NCBI GenBank assembly: GCA_951804985.1
Contig: OX638133.1
Coordinates: 11,800,501-11,864,500, forward strand
DNA length: 64,000 bases
Direction of reading: 5' to 3'
Source of the DNA: Dryomyza anilis
Taxonomy: Eukaryota; Arthropoda; Insecta; Diptera; Dryomyzidae
Shown in pieces: positions 5,536 to 53,316 of the stretch (its first letter is position 1; every line of letters starts with the position of its first letter). Below the pieces are notes generated by a model. The model searched no databases. It was not told where the DNA came from and worked only from the letters and a program-made list of their open reading frames with translations. Made by a program: the position numbers and the translations under genes.

Positions 5536-8500
5536 CCGTCTTAACTTATAACTTAGATTACTAATATACCTACGCTGTATGTGCGAAAATTGGCGAGATC
5601 GGTCCATTGTGACCTATGATCCGACCACTTATGTTCAAATACCTCATATAAAATGTACATATAAAGATCAATTTTTATGTATACGTGCTTAGGTAAACTT
5701 TTTTGGTCAAATATATATTGATATCATGCNNNNNNNNNNNNNNNNNNNNNNNNNNNNNNNNNNNNNNNNNNNNNNNNNNNNNNNNNNNNNNNNNNNNNNN
5801 NNNNNNNNNNNNNNNNNNNNNNNNNNNNNNNNNNNNNNNNNNNNNNNNNNNNNNNNNNNNNNNNNNNNNNNNNNNNNNNNNNNNNNNNNNNNNNNNNNNN
5901 NNNNNNNNNNNNNNNNNNNNNNNNNNNNNAGCGCCTGTGCTGCGTCCACCGCCTGGTTTTGGTATCAGCAACAGCAGCACCATGAAACCGCCACCTGGCT
6001 TTCAATCTAATATCATTGTCAATTCCGTGGCCAAGCCAGCAAACAATTTAACCTTTACCAGTTCGCTGGGCGAAACGTATAGCATAATGCCGACGCACGC
6101 GTATATGCAGCCACCAGAGTCTATAACCCGCAATCAGGTAACAAGAACAATAAAAATTAGCAGTGACGTGATGAGTTTATGTAACGCTTATTCAATTCTA
6201 GAAACTGGTCTCACACTTTAAAGAGAGTCTGAGCACGCCCGAGGCTTTGGACGAATTCCGTCAGATATCGACAAAATTCCGCGAGGGTGTCTACAAGGCA
6301 CAGGCCTACTATGAGCATTGCAGGCGGCTTTGAAGGATAAATTCGATCCAATATTTCCAGAGCTGTTGGCGCTTTTACCAGATATTAGCAAGCAACAAGT
6401 AAGTAAATTAAACTACACAACAAATGACATCATTTCATATCCGACATCATTTCGAAACGCCTTTTACAAAATTCAACACGTTACAAATTTTTATATGAAA
6501 ATGTTTATAGAAATATTTTAAACGTGTTAGTTTTTGTAAGGAGCTTCGATATGTGGTACAAAAACAAATAGAAATTGTTTTTTTTTTATAAAGTTTTGAC
6601 GTCGGACAACAACACAAATTCAAGGGTGTTGTTCTACAACAAGAATTTTTGTTAGGGTTGGGATATCTAGTAAAAAGTACAGACTAATTATAGAATATTG
6701 AAAACGGATGCATATTCTTGATTTTTCGGGTTTAAAATTTAAACAAAAAAAACGTTCAATCAAGATGTTAAAAATGGGTCGACTCTTTCTTTTTTTCATA
6801 TTGACCAACGCTCAGGGGATGCTCCCTATTCATGCAATGCACAGTGTTGATCGAATGAAAGGATTGTAGGTTATTGGGAGGCAGGAAAGATGGAGTAGTA
6901 TCGGTGGATGTTTGTTTTGAACTTGCCAATATCAAAGATGTCGGGAAAAACAAACGCAGGGAGATTGTTCCACAAACGTATCGTGCGACTGAAGAACAAA
7001 ATCTCTCTGTAATGCGTTGTTCTGTTCTGTTGAGAGCCGAGTGCACTACGAAGGGGTGGGCTTGGTTCGATGCCCGAGTAGAACGAGAAAACACACGACC
7101 TGGTGGAATCAAGCCATGAATTTCCCTCGAATACTTTCCGTTGTAATACATATAGAACAGACTGACACACCCAACGGTCCTGCAGTGCTCAAGAGAACCA
7201 ATAGTCGATGAAATATTTTCGTCTCCTATTAAATATATCGCACGTTGTTGTATTCTGCCGAGGAACTCCAAGGAGGATTTTGAAGCCTCTGCCCAAATGT
7301 GGAAATTGTATTCCATCGTTGGCCGAATATAGGTAGTGTAGACATGGCGCAAGTCAGCAGGAGGGAGGTATGTCTTACAACTTTTAAGAAAACCGAGGCA
7401 CTTGGCCGATTCGTTCGACACATCAAATATGTGATCATTCCATCGGAGGTCACATTGAATTGATATACCAGAACGTCAAGAGCAGCTGACTTAAAATATC
7501 CACAAAGCCCATATTGATGGGAGGAAGGGGTGAATCCATTCTTTTCTGAGATAGCAGATCAACTCTATTTGCAAGTTCCCACTCGGAGATTGTTTTAAGG
7601 TCATTATTGAGTGTGTCATTCTTAGTGCGTATTTTACTCTCAATTTCCAAAAAGTTTGGGAGCTTGTTGAATGAATATGAATGACAAATGTTACTGTCAT
7701 CTGCAAAACAATGAATTGGGTTCTGGGTCAATGACAAAAGGTCATTGATAAATACCAGAAATAGGAACGGGGATAGGACGGAACCCTGCGGAACTCCAGA
7801 ATTGATGGAATGTTGTTCTGAGAAAACACCATCCATCGCAACTCGTATTGAACGACCCTGAAGAAAACTCGATATCCATCGAGTGAATGAATTACCGACA
7901 CCACATGCAATTAGTTTTGATACGAGGGCCTCATGCCACACTCGATCAAACGCCTTGGAAATATCTAGAGCAACAACCTTGCTCTCTCTAAAAAGGTGAA
8001 TACAATTATTCCACTTTTCTGAGAGAACCGCCTTTGGATCCATATTCAATCCAGATAGCTTCAAAAGACTTGTCGTTTTTCCGACGTGGAATTGAAATGT
8101 TTCCAGGGAAAGGTAGTGGCGATGGACAATACTTTTACGAAGACGTTTTTTTTTCCTTTTTTTTCTTAACAACCAGATATTGTATCTCGATGTGAGTGAC
8201 AGCTTGCGTTCAAACTGCACTCACATCGTCAAGTTCTTACGTTGATTTTGGTGGCCTTACATTTATGAATCTGCTATAAAAGTAGAACCTTGTTACCAGC
8301 TAACAAATTTGAGTTAATAAAATTCAAAATTTATTTAAAACCTTTTTAATTTGGCAATATTTATTATAGCGTGGTTTGTGTTTTTGATAAATATTTTGGT
8401 TCAAGGATTCGGAATTCGAAAAACAATAAACAGCTGCTCTGAAAAAGATGACAATTACCGTATTCACTGTTCATCGTATTTTAGTATGGTATTCGTACCA

Positions 8501-12693: not shown

Positions 12694-13156
12694 AATGCAG
12701 CAAAACAAAGCAAATATACAGATTTGTAAGACTAATATTTCATGGATTTGTTTTCATTATCCACTATAAAAAAACCGGAAATAATGTCAAAAAACATGGG
12801 CGGATACTGTGTCCGATTTGGCTGATTTCGAAGTCTGACCCATTTTTGGCTAAGACATACTGAAACAAAATTTCGATTTTCGATTTGTTTGTACTTTATT
12901 AATAAACGAGCCTTTCAAAGGCCATATATGAATGCAGCAAAACAAAGCAAATATACAGATTTGTAAGACTAATATTTCATGGATTTGTTTTCATTATCCA
13001 CTATAAAAAAACCGGAAATAATGTCAAAAAACATGGGCGGATACTGTGTCCGATTTGGCTGATTTCGAAGTCTGACCCATTTTTGGCTAAGACATACTGA
13101 AACAAAATTTCGATTTTCGATTTGTTTGTACTTTATTAATAAACGAGCCTTTCAAA
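12694..13156. repeat. Two identical 226-bp direct repeats
   Basis: Copy 1 spans 12694-12919 and copy 2 spans 12931-13156, separated by 11 bp. They read alike throughout as far as I can compare, beginning AATGCAGCAAAACAAAGC and ending AACGAGCCTTTCAAA. This is a very recent tandem duplication or an assembly duplication. No coding content is seen. Confidence 0.85.
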
Positions 13157-13607
13157 CATGGTTATATATCGAGTAGACTAACCTAATAATAAAAATAAGT
13201 ATAATAAAAAAAAACAAGAGGAAAAAACTTATATTGCAAGCCCTAACAATTTTCAAAAAATAATTAAAAAAAAAAATAGTTTATTATTAGTGAATTATTT
13301 CATCGCATTCTGACCAGTACTTCTCAGTTTTCGTGTAGACTTAAGTGTTCGTGATTAGTTTGAAGAAAAGACAACACTTAAGTATTCACTGTGAAACCAG
13401 TCCTTGATGTGTATATACTTCAACCATACTTCGAACTATACCGTCAATTTTTAAGAAAGCTAAGTCGATTTTCATACGAACATTTAAATTTGATTTTATA
13501 AATGTGTCAAGTATAGCCAGTTAGAAGGACTTATTATATGAAGACCACTATTATTGAATAAAAAAATAATTAGCGTATTCACCGTTCGACGTATTTTAGT
13601 ATGGTAT

Positions 13608-13778
13608 TGTTAAAAATGTACTTTTGGTTTTATAACTTGTTATATATATTTTACTTTTAACATAACAATCAATGAAATTTGTATTTGATTGTTATGTCAA
13701 TATTTTTCACTTAATTGAATTTCACATATTGAAATAAATACATTCGTTCTTTTTACATAAAAGTGAGTTTAAATAAAA
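13608..13778 (+). repeat. 5' LTR of the copia-type element
   Basis: 171 bp, starting TGTTAAAAATG and ending TTTAAATAAAA. It is identical to the 3' LTR except for one T/C difference in CTTAAT(T/C)GAATT. It lacks the usual terminal CA, but both LTR ends are defined by the target duplication, the primer site and the polypurine tract. Confidence 0.92.
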
Positions 13779-13791
13779 GGTTATGGGCACC
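13779..13791 (+). promoter_or_regulatory. Primer binding site
   Basis: GGTTATGGGCACC follows the 5' LTR directly. It resembles the internal (half-tRNA) initiator-Met primer site described for copia elements of flies. The start codon of the large ORF (13783) lies inside this site. Confidence 0.7.
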
Positions 13792-16608
13792 AACGAAAAA
13801 TCTTCGGGAATTGCACAGTTTGCAGGAGCAAACTTTGAAAATTGGAAATTTCGTGTGGAGAAGCATCTGGCTTCAGCGGGTTGTCTGGAAGCTGTAAAGC
13901 AGTCAGCTCCAGGAACAGCATCAGGAAGCAGCGTGTCTACGACGGTACCGGACGATTTTCAGAGGAAGGATGCGAAGGCGCAGGACATCATAACCAGCTT
14001 AGTCCACGATGATTACCTGGAATACATAAGGGACAAATCAACCGCAAAAGAGATGTGGAATGCATTGGTCGCTACATTCGCACGTAAATCACCACAATGC
14101 CAAACAATTGTGCGAAAAGAGCTGGCAAATCTTCGACTGAGAGATGGAGAAGATTTAAGTGCACATCTACTTAAATTCGATTCTCTAATACGGCAGCTAA
14201 AGACGGCGGGTGCAAAACCAGAAGAGGCTGATTTAGTGTCGCAGCTCTTTTTGACCCTGCCTGAATCATATGATGCAGTAGTGACCGCTTTGGAAAATAT
14301 GAATGAAGAGGAATTAACATTGGCAGCGGTGAAGCCACGCCTCTTAGCAGAGGAGTCCAAAAAGAAGAACCGTTATGTAGAAGAAGCTGCAGAAAAGGTT
14401 ACTGCTTTTACATCGCAGCGAAATGGAGATCGGTTCAACAATACACACTCAGTTCCAAACAATCGCTTCAATGGAAACTGCCATAAGTGCGGAAAATATG
14501 GGCACATGAAGAAGGATTGTCGGTCTAAGGATGCTAGGTATTCGGCAGAAAGTAAACCTGCTGTAAGTTTCATGGCTGACAATGGCAATCAGCAAAAATC
14601 CATTGCAACGAAAAATGAAGTTGCGTTTGCATTGGATTCTGGAGCAACGGATCATTTTGTAAATGATGATAAATTGTTTTACAAACTGCAATATTTGTCA
14701 AGTCCGCGTTATATCAACGTAGCAAAAGCAGATGCGAGTATTGAAGTATCTGCAGTTGGAGAGATCCGTGGATTAAGCGATACTGGAACCGAATTGCTAT
14801 TAAAGAATGTCTTATACAGCCCACAACTTCGTGAAAACCTGCTTTCAGTTAGCAAGATGGTGAAGGCTGGTATCAACGTGCAGTTCAAGAAAAGCAATGT
14901 AACGTTGGAGAAAGATGGTCAAGTTATCGCAACTGCAAGGCGCAGTGGAAATTTATTCGAGATTAAAATGCGAGCAATCTATTCTGTAGCCAACTTAACT
15001 ACATCAAAAGAAAGCGCCTTGTGGCACACGAGAATCGGACACAATGATGATGTGCAGGAAGAGACCGAAATCAAAATCATACACCGAAATGATCAAGAGG
15101 GGGAGGAAGATATTGATATTTCGAACAATTATAATAGCGAGCCAGATATCGTCGTGGGACCTCTAGATCAAGATAACGTCGTGGGAATTCAAAAACCTGA
15201 TACCGTCGAGGGACGGGGCTGCAAGAAGCGCGCCATCGAGAAATGTATGCAGTGTCGCGGTAATGATGACGAGAGACGCGTTCAGAACATTGGTCCCGGC
15301 GTCGTGCAGCAGATAGGACAGGTGTGTCGCAAATGTATGGGCAGTTGTGAGATGATTTCGGAGAAGACTGGTTGCAAGCAATGCAGCGGTCGCAAGACAG
15401 TGCGCATACGTAAATTACTCGAGGTGCACAAGCGTGACGGACAGACGATTATATTCACGGGCGAATGTGATCATGAGCCTGAATCACAACCGGGCGATAT
15501 TATTATATTGTTGGACGAGAAGGAACATGTGTCGCATGTACATGTGGGTCCCGATTTAAAGATGAAGATTCCGGTGCAGTTGATCGAGGCTTTGTGCGAT
15601 TTTCAGCGAGTGATCCAAACGCTGGATGATCGTGATTTGGTTATTTCATCAGAGCCGGATGAGGTGATAAAGCACGAGCTGACCAAGTGTGTTATGGAGG
15701 AGGGCATGCCGTTGTACAAGAAACCAATCGAGAATTTGGCGAATAGTGTGGCAACAGGCGCACGTGGCGCAGTTGAGGCTGCTGGAGAAAATGCCAAGAA
15801 GATGGCTACAGGAGTTCGTGACGCAGTAGATGCCATGAGTGTAAATGCCATGCGTGTGGCAGCCGGTTCCGGGCATGCAGTGGGTGTACAAGCAAAAAAG
15901 GCCTCTACAGATGCAGTTGATGCAATGGGCGCCATGGTCAACAGGGAAAAAGATGCAGCGAATAATGCAGAACATGCAATGTGCAATGTTTTCACAAAGG
16001 CAGCGAACAACATCAGAAACGCCATGGACTCGATGACGTACAAAGTGTCGGACGAAATGCAAGAAACAATTAAAAATATTTTGGCGTTGCTGTACAAAAA
16101 GAGTGCAACGTCCAGTGAGGCACATGATGTCACAGATGAGGAAGCATCAACATCAGACGATGAACACACAGATGATGAGCACACTACAGAGTCAGTCATT
16201 TCAAAACATACCTCATGTGGTGGAATAAGAGCAAAAGGAAACAGAGGAAAAACTTTTGAAATCGACCGTGATAATCCAATCGAAAGTGATGACTACACTT
16301 TTAATGCGGGAAATCTATTCGAAAAGGAACAAGACAGTGCAGCGCCAGCCTATAACAGCGGCGAGCATTTGACACTGGCGGAAGAGAAGAACAGTCAAGT
16401 GCAACAGGTCCTCAGTGATATGAAGACAAAGAGCAAATACATCTCTTGTCGCAGTGAAAAGACGAAAAGAATTGATGATGGACCACCTCGATGTACGCTG
16501 GTGGATCGAGAGCCGCCTCCGTCGCCAAAACTTCAAACACATGGAAGTACCAACAAAGCAAGGAATATTTACAAAATCATTAGAAATAACAAGTTTAAGA
16601 ACAATTAG
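13783..16608 (+). CDS. Chimeric copia Gag-protease / DnaJ (Hsp40) fusion ORF of an LTR retrotransposon
   Basis: One uninterrupted ORF of 941 codons. Residues 1-230 are a copia-type Gag (NFENWKFRVEKHL near the start). A CCHC knuckle (CHKCGKYGHMKKDC, about 233-246), an aspartic-protease active site (DSGATDHFVND, about 285-295) and the start of the pre-integrase domain (LWHTRIGHN, about 413-421) follow. Integrase, reverse transcriptase and RNase H are absent. From about residue 470 to 650 the protein instead matches a DNAJA-type Hsp40: VEGRG, CMQCRGND, IGPGVVQQIGQVCRKC, CKQCSGRKTVR, EPESQPGDIIILLDEKEH, LIEALCDFQRVIQTLDDR and KCVMEEGMPLYKKP. The J domain is missing and the first zinc motif has lost its cysteines (PDTVEGRG), but the zinc pair made by motifs 2 and 3 remains. 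Residues about 655-765 form Ala-rich helical repeats of 15-18 residues; the rest is an acidic and basic low-complexity tail. The start is fixed because conserved Gag begins by residue 18 and no other Met precedes it. Confidence 0.9.
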   Translation: MGTNEKSSGIAQFAGANFENWKFRVEKHLASAGCLEAVKQSAPGTASGSSVSTTVPDDFQRKDAKAQDIITSLVHDDYLEYIRDKSTAKEMWNALVATFARKSPQCQTIVRKELANLRLRDGEDLSAHLLKFDSLIRQLKTAGAKPEEADLVSQLFLTLPESYDAVVTALENMNEEELTLAAVKPRLLAEESKKKNRYVEEAAEKVTAFTSQRNGDRFNNTHSVPNNRFNGNCHKCGKYGHMKKDCRSKDARYSAESKPAVSFMADNGNQQKSIATKNEVAFALDSGATDHFVNDDKLFYKLQYLSSPRYINVAKADASIEVSAVGEIRGLSDTGTELLLKNVLYSPQLRENLLSVSKMVKAGINVQFKKSNVTLEKDGQVIATARRSGNLFEIKMRAIYSVANLTTSKESALWHTRIGHNDDVQEETEIKIIHRNDQEGEEDIDISNNYNSEPDIVVGPLDQDNVVGIQKPDTVEGRGCKKRAIEKCMQCRGNDDERRVQNIGPGVVQQIGQVCRKCMGSCEMISEKTGCKQCSGRKTVRIRKLLEVHKRDGQTIIFTGECDHEPESQPGDIIILLDEKEHVSHVHVGPDLKMKIPVQLIEALCDFQRVIQTLDDRDLVISSEPDEVIKHELTKCVMEEGMPLYKKPIENLANSVATGARGAVEAAGENAKKMATGVRDAVDAMSVNAMRVAAGSGHAVGVQAKKASTDAVDAMGAMVNREKDAANNAEHAMCNVFTKAANNIRNAMDSMTYKVSDEMQETIKNILALLYKKSATSSEAHDVTDEEASTSDDEHTDDEHTTESVISKHTSCGGIRAKGNRGKTFEIDRDNPIESDDYTFNAGNLFEKEQDSAAPAYNSGEHLTLAEEKNSQVQQVLSDMKTKSKYISCRSEKTKRIDDGPPRCTLVDREPPPSPKLQTHGSTNKARNIYKIIRNNKFKNN

Positions 16609-16630
16609 AAATTCTTTGAATTTTATAATT

Positions 16631-16639
16631 GAGAGGGGG
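16631..16639 (+). promoter_or_regulatory. Polypurine tract
   Basis: GAGAGGGGG lies immediately before the 3' LTR start (TGTTAAAA), where a plus-strand primer is expected in an LTR retrotransposon. Confidence 0.85.
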
Positions 16640-16810
16640 TGTTAAAAATGTACTTTTGGTTTTATAACTTGTTATATATATTTTACTTTTAACATAACAA
16701 TCAATGAAATTTGTATTTGATTGTTATGTCAATATTTTTCACTTAATCGAATTTCACATATTGAAATAAATACATTCGTTCTTTTTACATAAAAGTGAGT
16801 TTAAATAAAA
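16640..16810 (+). repeat. 3' LTR of the copia-type element
   Basis: 171 bp, matching the 5' LTR at 170 of 171 positions by my reading. It is followed at once by the GGTAT target duplication and the rest of the MITE. Confidence 0.92.
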
Positions 16811-17524
16811 GGTATTCATACCATGTAGCATATATACGACACAATAACGTCAATTTGTTGTTGCATCCCTTATAAAAGTGAAATATTTACCACAAGTGTT
16901 GTATTTAAGAGGCATGTTTTTTGGTGTCATATTTTGTGAAATGAAGATAAATTGTGAAATTGAAGATGAATAGTACGCTTTAAATGTTAATTTATTTGTT
17001 TTTATATTTAACTCGAGGCATATTTATGATCATTTAAAAAAATCCTAAATTTATAAAAATCAACAGCATTTATTTGACGAAACATTTGAGCAAGCAGAAA
17101 AGTGGTGCTCACAGTTTAATTGCCGTACCATCGTATTCAGACAATGTCGTATCAATACCATGAAATTGTGAATACGCTAAATGTATTCAATTTGATCTAA
17201 GTATTTCTTTCCATGTATTCATTTCACTTTCTGTCGTTTGTCGCGCCATCTGCATTTAATTGTTGCCAACTTTACGATATACTACTCACCCAAGCCATGA
17301 TCCCGTAAAAACCCATAACGTAAAGAAAATTCTTCCAAGTTGTTGAAATAAAATTTTCTAGCGAAGGCAACGTTCATTTATTTTCGACTGCTGCAAAAGT
17401 GTAAACAATTCTTTTAACAAATAAACTATTTACAAAGTTTTAATAATAAAAGTTGCAACAGCAACGTGAGTTCAACTGAAAAACGATTAAACAATATTAG
17501 TTATTCAGCGCAACAACAAACAAA

Positions 17525-20500
17525 ATGTCGCTAAAACAAGCGAAAGATGAGACTCGACAAATGGAGCTGAAGCGAAAGCAAATCTGTCGCTTCTGTCTGT
17601 CCCAGCAAGTGGACAATCTGGGCAACATTTTTGCAAGGGATACACGTTTTAAGACTTCAGCACCGCTGCCGGTCCAAGTGATGGCAATCGCTTCCATTGA
17701 GGTAAGTGGTCATTGCATCTGCAGTAGCGCAGTTACTGGTTACTGCGCTGCCTGGTTGAGCCTTGACTAAGCAGGCGTCGTCGTTAGTGGTTCGTCTCTA
17801 AATATATTGACGAAGATAAACTCTTGGTCTACGTTGGTGTTTTAGTCAATACACAAAATATAAACAGCTTTATTTAAATATGCGTAATCTCTGTCTGTGG
17901 TTGTTAAATATACTAAAAAGAAAAATGTAATAATTTTTTATTTGTTTACAATTAAAAAAAAATTAAAAATCATATTAAAAAAAAAAATCGAATTATTTGA
18001 ATGTGCAACTGGAGGAGACAGCGACGACAGAATTTGACTCTGTATGTCCGCAAAAAAAATAATTCTACCCGGTGAAACCTTTTTTGATCCCCCTTACCAA
18101 ATTAGAAAACAGACTGGATAACAACTAGTTTTTGGATTATAACAAAGTTGTAAATTGTCACGGGATGTGTAAAGTAGACCTAAAAATTACAAAAAGTGAC
18201 CTCAAGTCACGTAGTACCCCCTAAAAATCGTTGCCTTTGATTCTGTGTATGTGAAGGATTTTTATTTATCTTTTACTCCTAATTTTAGAAAATAAAAATT
18301 TTAAAAATAGAGGTTTAGGCTTGGCAATTCCTTTTTTGTTTATACCGCCTAAACATTGATTATGACCTTGGTCGGTTTTCGATTTATGTCTGTAGTTTTT
18401 CGTTCTCATTCGGAGGAGTTACTTTTTTTGTATTATATATAAAGTAACCTTATAAAATTTTAGGTGTTTTAATACGATAAAATAACGAAAATTCAATCAT
18501 AATTTACTATTTTAATTACAATACATGATACTTTCTTTATCGCAAAGTATTCTTAATTTATATTAACCGGTAGCAATAGATTTCTGAGTGCAATTTGAAT
18601 ATGTCATAATAAACATCTTACAGCTTTCGATCAAAATCAACTATAAACTTTAATTCAATCGAATATACTACCAAATATATATAAAAATGTAATCACTCTT
18701 TGGACACTCACGTCGGTAGTAATATTGAATATTTTTCATTTTTTAATATATTTTCGAGTTCTTTGACGTATTATCGATTGAATAATCTCTAAACTTACAA
18801 CACTTTTTTCTCATTTAAAGGTCTTCTCCAGCGATGGCATGCCCTACATGGTCTGCAATGATTGTCGGCTGCTCTTCGAACACGCCTACCGCTTCAAGCA
18901 GATGTGCAATCGCGCCGATACCATGTTGCGTCAGTTTCCACTTACTGGCGAGTGGCCAAAACCACTGGCCAGACCGAAATGTCCACCACAAGTAAAGGTG
19001 CCAGTTTCAACTTCACCGTCACAACAAACATCAGCTGTAGATCAATCACAAAATAAGGCCGTCAAAAAATCGTCTGTTGATGTGACTTCCGTTGTCACTG
19101 TCGTCTCTCCAACTACCGCAGTCACCAAGAAAGAGAAACCAAAAACAAGAGTTTTTGGAATTCCCAAAAAACTGCTCAACTCCAGTCCGGCCGACTCGCC
19201 GGAGCCGCCTGTACCAATGCGCATGAAGCGCGAGCAACTAGATGAGTCGACTACCAACTTTCTCGATAAGATGGAAAATGACGAAGAACTGTCTATGGAT
19301 GATGTGCAACGCTTAATTGCAGCCACAAATGATGAAGACGATGACAATTATGAGTTTGTTGATCCAAATCTGGGAGCAACAGTGCAGAAAGCATCTATTA
19401 CAATAGCAACAGCGCCACCAAAATCAAAGCCAAAACTCTTGAACAAATCGTCGATGCGCATATTGAACAAAGATGCTGAAGTCGTGCTTGAACCACGCTT
19501 GAGTGCACCACAGCTATTGCGCGATGTAGACGGCAATGTGGCCATGGTCACCGAAATCATAGATCCCAGCAAGTATCCAGCCGAAACGGAAGCTCCGCAG
19601 GATCCCGCTCTCGTCGAGTCTGTTGTCTTTCCTTGTACGCACTGTGAGCGCACGTTTCCGTTGCGTCAACTGCGCGATATACACATGGTCAACCATACGC
19701 GCAGCCGCACTTTTAAGTGTCCCGAATGTGAAAAGTCCTTTTTCTCCAAATACGATCTGGCCAAACATAGCCTCATACATACGGGTGATCGCCCCTTCAC
19801 TTGCAGTGTCTGTCATAAGGGCTTCACACGTGCCAATCTGTTGCATCGACACGAGAAATCACACACCGATATTCCGAAATACATTTGCGTCTACTGCGAA
19901 AAGCCTTTCATATCGAAGGAGGAAATGGAAAAGCATGCTCTACGCCATCAGAAGAATCGTCCGTTTCAGTGCAACGTCTGCGAAAAATCGTTCGCATTCA
20001 AGCAAGGCTTGGAGCGGCACGAGGTGGTGCACTCTCGCGAGCAGCCCTATCCGTGTCAATACTGTGATCAGAGTTTCTCGACGCCCAGCAAGTTGGCGCG
20101 TCATCTGACGGCACATGCCGGCAAACGCCCGTATCCGTGCAAATTCTGTACGAAATCCTATTTGCTGTCTCATCATTTGACACGTCACATGCGTTCACAC
20201 AAAAACGGTGGTGGTGAAACTGTTGCCTTTATGTGCGCCAACTGCGACAAGGTTTATCGTACACGCGACGAGCTAATCTATCATTCGGCGGTGCATGCCA
20301 CCGAGACGTTGGTCTGTCCACTGTGCAAGGACACATTCCATGATATTGCAGCCGTGACTGCACACATTAAAGAACACGCCGAGGGCGAGGCGTACGCTTG
20401 TGAATTTTGCGATTTGATATACATGACATCGGAAAGGTTGCAAGAGCACACGGATAGCGAGCATGCCGGTGATATGGTTGCCTATCATGAACACGACAAG

Positions 20501-21745
20501 AACAAGCCACAGACATCGGAGACACAAGAAACTAAGATAAAGATTGTGCAAGATTACACAGACAACGACAATATGAGCAACATAGATGAGACCATAGAGG
20601 AGTTTCTGGTCGATGAACTGTCGGAGGATGCGCTTCAAGCAAGTGACAAGGAACATATAATGGGGCAGAATATCAAGGAGGAACGTGAATGTTGTAAGTT
20701 GTTGTACCAGTCCGAGTGCCACATATTATTAAAACATTTTCTTGTTTAGTTTAGTAGTGCTATCGAGCAATTTTACCAAAGAATTTTTTAACAATTAAAA
20801 TATTTTATAACAATTAATTTCAATACAAAATGTCGCTTTATAATTACAGACACGCCAAGAGACCAACCGAAAATCTTAAACCAAATCGTTTTGAATTCGA
20901 ACAGCAACATCGAGGAGGATGAGGATGAAAACTTTTATTTGCTAGACGAAAATAGCATTGTTGTGGCCAATGAAGTATTACAGGACACTGTGGAAATATC
21001 CACAACCAGACAACCGCCCGCAAAAATGCGTAAAGTGGCCGTCGCTTCGTCCAGTAAGCAATATATCAAAACGACCGAACGACCAACAAAATCACAAACA
21101 ACTACAATGCCACAGCCGGCGCCGCTACGTCGCAAAATTGCTATAACACAAGGTATTAAAATCGAGAATGCCGATGACACGATGGCAGCACCAAAGACAA
21201 AACCGCAAGTCAATGCTACGAAAGGTGTTTTGCAAATTTTACCCAAAGGAGTCTCAGTGCGTCGCAACATGCCACAGAATGAAACTAATACCAATATAAT
21301 AAACGCCTCACCAACAGCAGCAACAACAAAGTCTGCCGCGCAAACATTAATGCGAAAATCTGGCGAAGCTGTGGGCACTGCACAAAAATCACCTGGCAAC
21401 AGTTCTATTTTATTAAACACTAAACAACGTTTATCTGCTGGCAAGAACGTCGCAGCACCAACTTCATCATCTCCTTCCTCTACTAATCAGAACGGCCAAC
21501 GCAGATCCAATGAATTAGCTGCATCTGTCAGCAAAAATACAACACCATCAAGCAGCAACAAATTGTCACCGACACAAAGTACGAGCGGTGCCGCTCCCAA
21601 AACTATGAAAATGTTTTTGGGCGACAAGAAGGTGCGAGTGCAAAAAATCACAGTCACCAAAGCGGAGGCTGCGGCCATGGCGAAGGATGGACGTATACAC
21701 ATGAAGGACGGCAACATGGTTCTGACCAAAGCCATTAAGAAATAA
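17525..21745 (+). CDS. ZAD-C2H2 zinc-finger protein (predicted transcription factor)
   Basis: Exons 17525-17701, 18821-20693 and 20850-21745, all GT-AG and phase-consistent, give 981 residues. The N-terminal ZAD (zinc-finger-associated) domain is split by intron 1: CRFC in exon 1 and CNDC (VFSSDGMPYMVCNDCRLLFEHAYRF) in exon 2. A Ser/Thr/Pro-rich linker with an acidic patch (NDEDDDNYEF) follows. Then come about ten C2H2 fingers, starting FPCTHCERTFPLRQLRDIH, with TGDRPF- and AGKRPY-type linkers. The last exon encodes a basic, Ser/Thr/Ala-rich disordered tail. ZAD proteins are an insect-expanded class of nuclear DNA-binding factors in which ZAD drives homodimerisation. I cannot name the Drosophila orthologue. 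An AATAAA at 21884 is the likely polyadenylation signal. A second copy of exon 1 lies 5.9 kb upstream, so the true transcription start may be at 11.5 kb, placing the copia element in intron 1. Confidence 0.92.
18000..18800. other. Intron 1 of the ZAD gene, no further feature
   Basis: AT-rich intronic sequence with long A and T runs. It contains no recognisable transposon end or coding segment. The acceptor TTTAAAG lies at 18814-18820. Confidence 0.5.
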
Positions 21746-51322: not shown

Positions 51323-53316
51323 ATGGCAACGTACTCCAATCAGCACTGGCTGCTATCACATGTACGCAACTCTTTCATATCCACCGATGACACGGGAATG
51401 TGTGAGACCGTCATGGCAAGCGATGATCTGCCCAAGCATTTCATGCGTAAATTTCAAGATGCCACGCCCACCAACAGCCACTACAGTAACAACGCCCACA
51501 ATGAGCTACAGCAGCAGCAACAACGTCGCAAATCCAATTGCAATAGCAAAAATACACAACGACTTTCGTTGGATCTGCCGCTGCAGGAGGTAGATTTTGT
51601 CTGCTACCCAGGACTGGATCAGAGTGATGACGAGGACATGGATCAATCAACACAATCTTACGATATTCAAATGTATCCCGAGGTGGGTGCACATCGTTTT
51701 CGCTCGAATACAGCACAAAAGCTCGAGAAGATGGACATAGCACGACGCAAGGCGGCACGCACCAAGTGTGTCAACTATGATGAGGAGATTTTGGAACCGG
51801 AGCGCATTGATTTGTTCGTGCGTAAAAACTTAGTAAAGCCACAAACATTGCAAGTACAACATGTGGTTGATGCTGTAGGGGATGATGATGATGACGTCGA
51901 TGATGTGGATGCGCCTGGAAAAACGGATTTTATTAGAAGCAGACTAAGTATGCAATTGGCCAACAGCCCTAAGCAAACACAAAATAAATTTATGGAATAT
52001 GCGCGCTTTGATGGCACCTCACAGACGGGCATGCAAACGAAGCGCATCAATGTGTTTCTCAGTATGTTGCCGGAGAAGGAGCGCAATTATCCAATTAAGA
52101 TTTGCGTTGTGGCTAGTGCCAAGATATTGGAGGTAAGTAGAGGTAGAAAATATGAAGTGAGTTTCATTTAAAAACCGAATGGATTTTATTGGACTGTACA
52201 AAATATGTCAGAAATATGCAAAAACATAAAAAAAAAACATTTATAGTTCAACTTTTTTGTCCACAGGTCATTGGCTTCGTTTGCTACAAGGCCACCATAC
52301 AATTTCCGGAGATACCGCTCAAGTCCATACGTCACTATGCGCTCTACATGACCGAGGACAACGACGACATGGAAGACTTTCCACCGCTGGATAATCGCGA
52401 ACCCTGCTCCAAGTTTGGTTTTTCACATCTCACACTCGCCGAGCGACGTCCATTGGCGCCGGTGACGCGCATCGATTACCATCCGCAAAATTCAACCAGC
52501 AAATCGTTGACATCGGAAGAGGATAAAGCGCGCTTGGCTGCCGCAGCAGTGCGTGCGCTGCAGGGCATTGATTTAAATGGCAATGATGAGTCGAATAATG
52601 AGTTGACAACGGGTGCCAACTCGGCCGCCGCTGCCACTGCCACCGTTGGTGACGATAGCTCAATCAATTATGCCGATCGCATGGACATACACAATGACAT
52701 GTTAGAGGCGCCCATCTACCGTAGCTATCGTCTGCACATCATTGATAAACGTTTCTTCAAAACTGAAGTGACACTGGGCATCTCTGGTGAACGCATCGAA
52801 ATCGATCAGCACAAGAACGTCAAATTCTGGACCAAACAGAAGGCTGTTACCTATCCCATCGATTCGATTGCATTTTGTGAAATTGTCGAACGCCGCAATC
52901 AGAAGGCTATATTGAGAATTTGGCTAAAATCTTCTTCGTCCTCATCTACAGCGTCTGCTGCTGCAGCTGCCTTTGCTGCGAATAATTCTGCCAACATAGA
53001 CATCATTAAATCATCAACGCTCAGCGTTGGTGGCGCCGGCAGCAATGTGGCAACACCACATTCACCCACCAGTCCCGGTCACTATCCGTCGATGTCATCG
53101 CCATTCGCTATGTTTGCAGGCGCCACAGCAGGCAGCGGCCAACCGCATCTGCGTTTTAAGCACTACGACTTTGAGGCGAATCTGCACATGGCCGATCATA
53201 TACTGCACAAGTTGAACTGTATACTGGATGTGTGTTCCAGCGAGTTGCGTCGTGACTTTTTGCAAATGCGCGAACGCAAATCGGAGCGCGCCAAAAAGCA
53301 TTTGAAAATGTTTTAG
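51323..53316 (+). CDS. Sin1: Sin1/MAPKAP1, TORC2 subunit
   Basis: Essential subunit of TOR complex 2, where it presents Akt/SGK/PKC substrates and helps membrane targeting. Exons 51323-52132 and 52267-53316 (phase 0, GT-AG) give 619 residues. The N terminus has [20 protein letters not shown]. The CRIM substrate-binding domain covers about residues 232-350 ([51 protein letters not shown]) and is cut by the intron. A Ser/Ala/Asn-rich linker replaces the Ras-binding-like region. The C-terminal PH domain begins near 421 ([40 protein letters not shown]) and contains a low-complexity insert of about 70 residues (about 493-562) before [20 protein letters not shown]. The start Met is the first in frame, close to the conserved N terminus. 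Confidence 0.95.

What the first reader, a model, noticed from the sequence alone, without database searches (positions are those of the whole stretch)
13608..16810. A young copia-type retrotransposon that has replaced its pol genes with a captured host DnaJ (Hsp40) segment
Seen: paired 171-bp LTRs with one difference, 5-bp target duplication GGTAT, primer site, polypurine tract, and one intact 941-codon ORF. The N-terminal ~420 residues are copia Gag, CCHC knuckle and protease. In the same frame, residues ~470-650 match the zinc-finger and client-binding region of DNAJA-type Hsp40s (IGPGVVQQIGQVC, EPESQPGD, LIEALCDFQR, KCVMEEGMPLYKKP). Integrase, reverse transcriptase and RNase H are gone. 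Known: capture of cellular genes by insect LTR elements is rare, and Gag can form RNA-carrying particles. Inference: a non-autonomous element that mobilises a chaperone-like domain, possibly as a Gag-Hsp40 fusion acting on capsid assembly or sequestering Hsp70 clients.
Basis: partly seen in the sequence, partly recalled or inferred. Interest (0 to 1): 0.93.

Follow-up and report, generated by a model that had tools for sequence, protein, structure and literature searches.

The report
Copia retrotransposon carrying two host genes
A fly jumping element has lost its own copying enzymes and carries pieces of two ordinary host genes, copied from messenger RNA and joined in frame to its shell protein; it has spread to many places in the genome, but the captured pieces look like drifting passengers rather than a working chaperone.

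Summary
The element is real. Window 13608-16810 has 171-bp LTRs (one difference), the 5-bp duplication GGTAT and one 941-codon frame: copia Gag-protease, then a fragment of a host DNAJA (Droj2-type Hsp40) gene. (1) It is a multi-copy family: 16 loci found carry the DnaJ piece, and 8 of 10 LTR-paired copies examined have their own exact 5-bp duplication. (2) Most of the rest of the frame is a SECOND captured host gene; its 63-nt GT-AG intron is cleanly absent, so that copy came from spliced mRNA. (3) Two junctions fall in 8-nt identities between the joined templates, as expected of template switching. (4) Both pieces have about the same synonymous divergence from their host genes (0.33, 0.32): probably captured together, long before this young insertion. 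(5) Of pol mainly the integrase-RT linker remains; intact-frame copia relatives exist in the genome. (6) Within the family Gag is constrained, but the captured parts change at the neutral rate, and the J domain and first zinc motif were not captured; the remaining zinc cysteines persist in most copies. So: a non-autonomous, gene-transducing copia family comparable to maize Bs1; a working Gag-Hsp40 is not supported.

The parts
13603..13607 (.). target-site duplication GGTAT, left copy
13608..13778 (+). 5' LTR, 171 bp, TGTTAAAA...AAATAAAA
   Evidence: 40 scored matches in the genome
13779..13795 (+). primer binding site GGTTATGGGC..., at the LTR edge; that copia elements prime with an initiator-tRNA-Met fragment is recalled, not from a call
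   Evidence: sequence
13783..16608 (+). single 941-codon ORF: Gag-protease / pol linker / DNAJA fragment / second host-gene fragment / out-of-frame pol end
13783..15042 (+). copia Gag, CCHC knuckle, protease and the first residues of the pre-integrase domain; 91.5% to the full-length relative L038
15041..15214 (+). pol remnant: stretch between the integrase SH3-like domain and RT, 82% to L038; 840 nt (280 codons) of pol missing just upstream, in frame
15207..15214 (+). CGAGGGAC, 8 nt identical in the pol linker and the host DNAJA exon: 5' capture junction
15207..15734 (+). captured fragment of the host DNAJA/Droj2-type gene (host residues ~144-323), 87% nt
15725..15734 (+). junction DNAJA to second gene; both host genes read ATGGAGAA here, the window ATCGAGAA, and the old copy L039 still ATGGAGAA
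15725..16542 (+). captured fragment of a second host gene (amphipathic, apolipoprotein-like repeats), 79% nt, in the host frame; exon junction at 16477/16478 without the 63-nt host intron
16551..16639 (+). 3' end of pol (read in another frame, giving the last ~20 codons), 3' UTR and polypurine tract GAGAGGGGG
16640..16810 (+). 3' LTR
16811..16815 (.). target-site duplication GGTAT, right copy

Best explanation
A non-autonomous, gene-transducing Ty1/copia family. Shown by sequence: a copia element in which 840 nt of pol (integrase) are lost in frame and RT/RNase H are replaced by two host-gene pieces in a row, one of them without its intron, joined at 8-nt identities; LTRs, primer site, purine tract, Gag and protease are kept and the chimera sits at many sites with its own target duplications. 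Inferred: the copia reverse transcriptase changed template between its own RNA and two host mRNAs, in one particle or in successive ones; the family is copied in trans by an autonomous copia, of which intact-frame relatives exist in this genome; Gag stays under selection because it builds particles for its own RNA; the captured stretches are carried along as filler, perhaps with some selection to stay open as reading frame, without a maintained chaperone function.
For: Order LTR, Gag, linker, DnaJ, tail, LTR in window and L031-L037 (L031, L035 and L036 with internal gaps). Of 10 LTR-paired chimeric copies examined, 8 have exact, distinct 5-bp TSDs; L039 and L040 do not. 16 of 16 DnaJ-bearing element loci also carry the tail. 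Full-length relative L038: rve, SH3_retrovirus and RVT_2 in one 1344-codon frame, identical LTRs; none of the 49 other element loci then held matches its IN, RT or RNase H pieces. Host DNAJA gene L051; second host gene L052 with intron GTAAGA...TAATAG, the spliced form present in the window and 11 of 15 other loci. Shared 8-mers CGAGGGAC and ATGGAGAA. dS of window to host 0.334 (DNAJA) and 0.320 (second gene). Variants shared by two or more copies: Gag 38 replacement:35 silent (0.39 of neutral), DnaJ 53:19 (0.92), tail 70:23 (1.02).
Against: Five of six length changes shared by copies in the captured part are multiples of three (6, 12, 27, 15, 9; the sixth is +1), and shared stops are somewhat fewer than expected (DnaJ 1 vs 3.2, tail 1 vs 3.0; P 0.16 and 0.20), so the frame may matter. 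The remaining zinc cysteines are mostly kept. Host-element dN/dS of 0.23 (DnaJ) and 0.53 (tail) taken alone look like constraint, though the host branch contributes. The closest full-length relative has LTRs only 86% identical; trans-mobilisation is inferred. The 3' junction back into pol shows no clear microidentity. The DNAJA piece lies inside one host exon, so it does not itself show an RNA origin.
Confidence: 0.88

Rival explanations
1. The Gag-Hsp40 fusion protein is functional: the DnaJ part binds clients or partners and helps or alters capsid assembly.
For: Frame open in window, L033, L034 and long in L036, L037; shared indels mostly multiples of three; the six cysteines of zinc motifs 2-4 are intact in window, L031-L036, L044 and L045, and Cys codons carry 0.25 distinct variants per codon against 0.59 overall (only 8 codons, and 2 changes where about 4.7 would be expected is not significant by my arithmetic).
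Against: J domain and first zinc pair not captured; replacement:silent ratios at the neutral value; C to Y in L037, C to S in L030 and two motifs lost to deletions in L039; glycines, of which DnaJ zinc motifs are made, vary more than average (0.85); 9 of 64 invariant DNAJA columns changed in the window copy.
Confidence: 0.09
2. DNA-level origin: the element recombined with genomic DNA or a processed pseudogene instead of switching template onto mRNA.
For: The DNAJA fragment lies within one host exon, so RNA origin is not shown for it.
Against: The second gene's 63-nt intron is exactly absent in 12 of 16 copies tested, window included; in the other 4 the site was not found. Both junctions fall in 8-nt identities; similar dS of both pieces.
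Confidence: 0.06
3. A host gene made from a domesticated Gag joined to DnaJ, not a mobile element.
For: Gag under constraint, long ORF.
Against: Near-identical LTRs, own TSDs at 8 loci on several contigs.
Confidence: 0.01
4. Assembly chimera.
For: None found; no raw reads were available.
Against: Same junctions at several independent loci on several contigs; no N within the element.
Confidence: 0.01

Closest known systems
Bs1 of maize (LTR retroelement with transduced segments of three host genes)
   Same: LTR element that took up segments of several host genes and gave a chimeric ORF (review passages in PMC13317346 and PMC5408686; that Bs1 lacks RT and joins Gag to the ATPase piece is recalled)
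   Different: Here a fly copia family, two genes, 16 loci found, several with identical LTRs, in-frame fusion with Gag-protease
LTR-mediated retroposition in metazoans (Tan et al. 2016, not held; described in PMC5408686, passages)
   Same: Template switching at microsimilarity between LTR-element RNA and host mRNA
   Different: Described there as a source of retrocopies; here the chimera became a multi-copy family
Pxyfem of Plutella xylostella (PMC9674220, outline with abstract and passages)
   Same: Host mRNA joined to LTR-retrotransposon gag sequence, by the authors' account through template switching, in an insect
   Different: Pxyfem is a W-linked tandem array without recognisable LTRs and acts through piRNAs; here LTR-flanked dispersed elements, no small-RNA data
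TR-GAG non-autonomous plant LTR elements (search listing only)
   Same: LTRs and gag kept, pol lost (definition recalled)
   Different: Carries captured host coding sequence, and is in a fly
LTR-captured genes of rice and sorghum (PMC3726574, abstract only)
   Same: Host genes inside LTR elements, many of the rice ones reported as pseudogenes under neutral selection
   Different: Plant-wide survey; here one animal family with donors and junctions resolved
Type I Hsp40 / DNAJA (Droj2)
   Same: Zinc-finger and C-terminal-domain segment, 84% aa to the host gene; zinc motifs 2-4 recognisable
   Different: No J domain, first zinc motif cut, C-terminus absent, neutral replacement rate

Membership tests
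Ty1/copia LTR retrotransposon | LTR pair, 5-bp target duplication, primer site, purine tract | tested here: met
Ty1/copia LTR retrotransposon | copia-type Gag, CCHC knuckle and protease region | tested here: met
   (knuckle below Pfam cut-off; DSGA motif read by eye, motif recalled)
Ty1/copia LTR retrotransposon | integrase before RT in pol | tested here: inconclusive
   absent in the chimera; met in the full-length relative L038
Gene-transducing LTR retroelement (Bs1-like) | host gene sequence between intact LTRs, fitting source gene elsewhere in the genome | tested here: met
Gene-transducing LTR retroelement (Bs1-like) | captured from spliced mRNA | tested here: met
   for the second gene: 63-nt intron absent; for the DNAJA part not testable, single exon
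Gene-transducing LTR retroelement (Bs1-like) | mobilised in trans | not testable with these tools
   candidate helpers exist
Type I J-domain protein (DNAJA) | J domain with HPD | tested here: not met
   no J-domain family
Type I J-domain protein (DNAJA) | four CXXCXGXG zinc motifs | tested here: not met
   first motif cut by the junction; cysteines of motifs 2-4 kept in the window and most copies
Type I J-domain protein (DNAJA) | purifying selection on the domain | tested here: not met
   neutral ratios within the family

The most novel reading that the evidence does not exclude
The family acts through RNA on its donors: antisense piRNAs made from its copies, which share exact runs of up to 34 nt (window) and 54 nt (other copies checked) with the host DNAJA sequence and up to 31 and 40 nt with the second gene, lower these host mRNAs in the germ line, a parasite-borne regulator like Pxyfem. 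No small-RNA data were available.
Probability: 0.07. Interest if true: 0.82.

Novelty: new member of a known kind. Interest (0 to 1): 0.55.

Why it matters
It is a clean animal case of an LTR retrotransposon that took up pieces of two host genes, with donors, junctions and an intron scar readable in one genome, and then multiplied. It shows what the element keeps under selection after capture (Gag) and what it lets drift (host cargo), and gives a natural record of template switching between an LTR-element RNA and cellular mRNA.

Tried and rejected
Functional Hsp40 reading: rejected on neutral ratios and missing parts. A claim in my notes that a zinc cysteine is lost in several lineages was a misreading; one search shows it kept in most copies, lost only in L037 and L030 with two motifs deleted in L039. 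For that reason the odds of the functional rival were raised from 0.07 to 0.09 and those of the best explanation lowered from 0.90 to 0.88. Integrase loss by splicing: left open. A GT...AG placement of the 840-nt gap exists at 54 of 66 matching bases against 55 for the best placement; one such hit among some 35 placements is weak evidence. Horizontal transfer of the chimera: dS 0.33 to host against about 0.15-0.17 within the family suggested it, but with fixed differences of 16 silent:5 replacement my own arithmetic puts about 14 silent changes on the host branch and 10 on the element side, not clearly different, so it was dropped. Tail as an unknown domain: Pfam gave nothing above cut-off and PDB one weak match at E 6.9e-4; solved by the host gene. 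Protein search with residues 440-941 gave no hit among 7992 scored candidates; as it also missed plain DnaJ relatives (length filter) it says nothing about absence. Five J-less database proteins (P0013, P0022, P0050, P0053, P0055) were read and are ordinary DNAJA pieces. A report of a DnaJ-carrying copia was not seen in the listings (open-licence library only). The Bs1 and Tan 2016 papers were not read (two look-ups not held).
Full report
Observation. Window 13608-16810 is a complete LTR element: two 171-bp LTRs with one difference, exact 5-bp duplication GGTAT, primer site at the LTR edge, purine tract, and one 941-codon ORF. Pfam and PDB comparisons place copia Gag and protease at the N-terminus and DNAJA zinc-finger plus C-terminal-domain sequence at residues 475-650. 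Relatives of the DnaJ part in the protein collection are insect DNAJA proteins, best 75% from an unnamed source, best named one Musca vetustissima at 71%; relatives of the Gag part are copia polyproteins, best 59%. The window lies in a 656.6-Mb assembly on contig C4. The species is not known to me; a higher fly is an inference.

Family. The LTR has 40 scored matches out of 53 candidates. Twenty stretches were fetched. By blastn the parts LTR, Gag-PR, linker, DnaJ, tail, LTR recur in L031-L037 (L031, L035 and L036 with gaps in DnaJ or tail) and, worn, in L039; fragments lie in L040, L041, L043, L044, L045, L048 and L030. L042, L047, L049 and L050 showed only an LTR, L046 an LTR and part of Gag. 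Of 10 LTR-paired chimeric copies examined (window, L031-L037, L039, L040), 8 have their own exact 5-bp duplication; L039 has none and L040 matches at four of five bases. LTR mismatches are 1, 0, 0, 0, 0, 3, 0, 1 for window and L031-L037, with gap columns in L034 and L036 from my LTR limits; L039 has 12, L040 1. L037 is a tandem. Of 24 DnaJ-protein matches in the genome, one is the host DNAJA gene and three are distant DNAJ-like matches (31-53%); the remaining 20 fall into 16 loci by my grouping, and 16 of these 16 also show tail matches. Both lists are lower bounds.

Parts of pol. L038 (C5:64.085 Mb), 4388 bp, has identical LTRs, its own duplication TAAAC and a 1344-codon frame; its pieces match rve, SH3_retrovirus and RVT_2. 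Against it the window body aligns at Gag-PR (91.5%), at the stretch between the integrase SH3-like domain and RT (82%) after an in-frame gap of 840 nt, and at the 3' end (86%). A GT...AG placement of that gap is possible but not better than others. None of the 49 other loci held besides the two host-gene loci matches the IN, RT or RNase H pieces of L038 (blastn E 1e-8, tblastn E 1e-6). An RT piece of L038 has 151 matches in the genome (150 of 1059 candidates scored): two at 98-100%, one partial at 91%, and among the rest six with 1310-codon open frames at 67-68%.

First captured gene. L051 (C3:96.66 Mb) holds a host DNAJA exon with J domain (HPD at residue 34) and the usual zinc region. Element 15207-15734 matches host residues about 144-323 at 87% nt. 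The junction with pol lies in CGAGGGAC, identical in L038 pol and in the host exon.

Second captured gene. Tail DNA has 28 matches. One, C5:57.032 Mb (L052), shows no LTR or DnaJ match and is a host gene with a 453-codon exon frame, amphipathic apolipoprotein-like repeats (PF01442, 26 bits, below cut-off) and a second exon ending in CSIL. Element 15725-16477 matches exon 1 (79%) and 16477-16542 exon 2; the 63-nt intron GTAAGA...TAATAG is cleanly absent. The intron is inferred from sequence; no RNA data were at hand. The spliced form is found in the window and 11 of 15 other loci; in L036, L048, L030 and L045 the pattern was not found (the site may be deleted, outside the stretch or diverged). 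The DNAJA-to-second-gene junction lies in ATGGAGAA, shared by both host genes and still read by L039. Both pieces are read in their host frame.

Age and selection. dS of the window to the host genes is 0.334 (DNAJA, 174 codons) and 0.320 (second gene, 264 codons); for other copies 0.32-0.41 (the six compared) and 0.32-0.42. That fits a single time of capture but does not prove it. A tree of 13 rows (L045 dropped for length) shows three element lineages and the host; 3 of 9 inner branches are well supported. Variants against the window, shared by two or more copies: Gag-PR 38 replacement, 35 silent, 0 stops; DnaJ 53, 19, 1; tail 70, 23, 1; relative to neutral 0.39, 0.92, 1.02 (L038 and host left out). 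Private variants: 0.62, 0.81, 0.99. Pairwise values are more mixed: DnaJ dN/dS between lineages 0.5-0.8 in most pairs and 1.0 to L030 and L039, tail 0.5-1.3. In DnaJ codons with all three lineages, differences fixed between host and element are 16 silent:5 replacement, within the element 30:94 (neutral 3.10 replacements per silent). So constraint shows on the host gene and on Gag, not clearly on the cargo. Counts include decayed copies, which lean toward neutrality. The window frame departs from 9 of 64 columns invariant among 20 DNAJA rows (one at the junction, one beside a small deletion), while the DNAJA rows themselves depart from 0-2 in 18 of 20 cases, 4 and 7 in the others. Against this reading, five of six shared length changes are multiples of three, and the cysteines of zinc motifs 2-4 are kept in most readable copies (C to Y in L037, C to S in L030, deletions in L039), so some selection on frame or fold is possible.

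Mechanism. Best account: copia RT switched templates between its own RNA and two host mRNAs at short identities, as described for LTR-mediated retroposition (PMC5408686, passages) and for Pxyfem (PMC9674220, passages). The chimera is then copied in trans (inferred). The closest known system is maize Bs1 (PMC13317346, passages). I did not see a DnaJ-carrying copia in the listings.

Verdict. New member of a known kind, with an unusually complete record.

Noticed in passing
window 12694-12919 and 12931-13156: Two 226-nt direct repeats, 100% identical, spaced 237 nt, about 0.45 kb upstream of the element: a very recent tandem duplication or an assembly duplication.
   Followed up: no
window 7450-8043, minus strand: Reverse transcriptase fragment of RVT_1 type, probably a non-LTR element remnant.
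   Followed up: no
window 51323-53316, plus strand: Sin1 gene: SIN1, CRIM and PH domains over two ORFs.
   Followed up: no
window 18839-20749, plus strand: C2H2 zinc-finger protein ORF downstream of the insertion; the element may lie in its upstream region or an intron.
   Followed up: no
L052 (C5:57031400-57034000): Second donor gene: apolipoprotein-like amphipathic repeats and a CSIL ending that looks like a prenylation box (recalled motif); the host DNAJA second-exon frame ends in CASS. Function unknown.
   Followed up: partly
L040, 2982-4142: 1161-bp derivative with LTRs, the first 78 nt of gag and part of the tail only: a further shrunken copy.
   Followed up: partly
linker and DnaJ parts of L034, L037, L044: Linker like L031/L036 but DnaJ part like the window: suggests recombination between subfamilies.
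   Followed up: partly
G000:C7:21725370-21775864: Nine copia RT matches, most at steps of about 4.5 kb: a tandem-looking array of copia copies.
   Followed up: no
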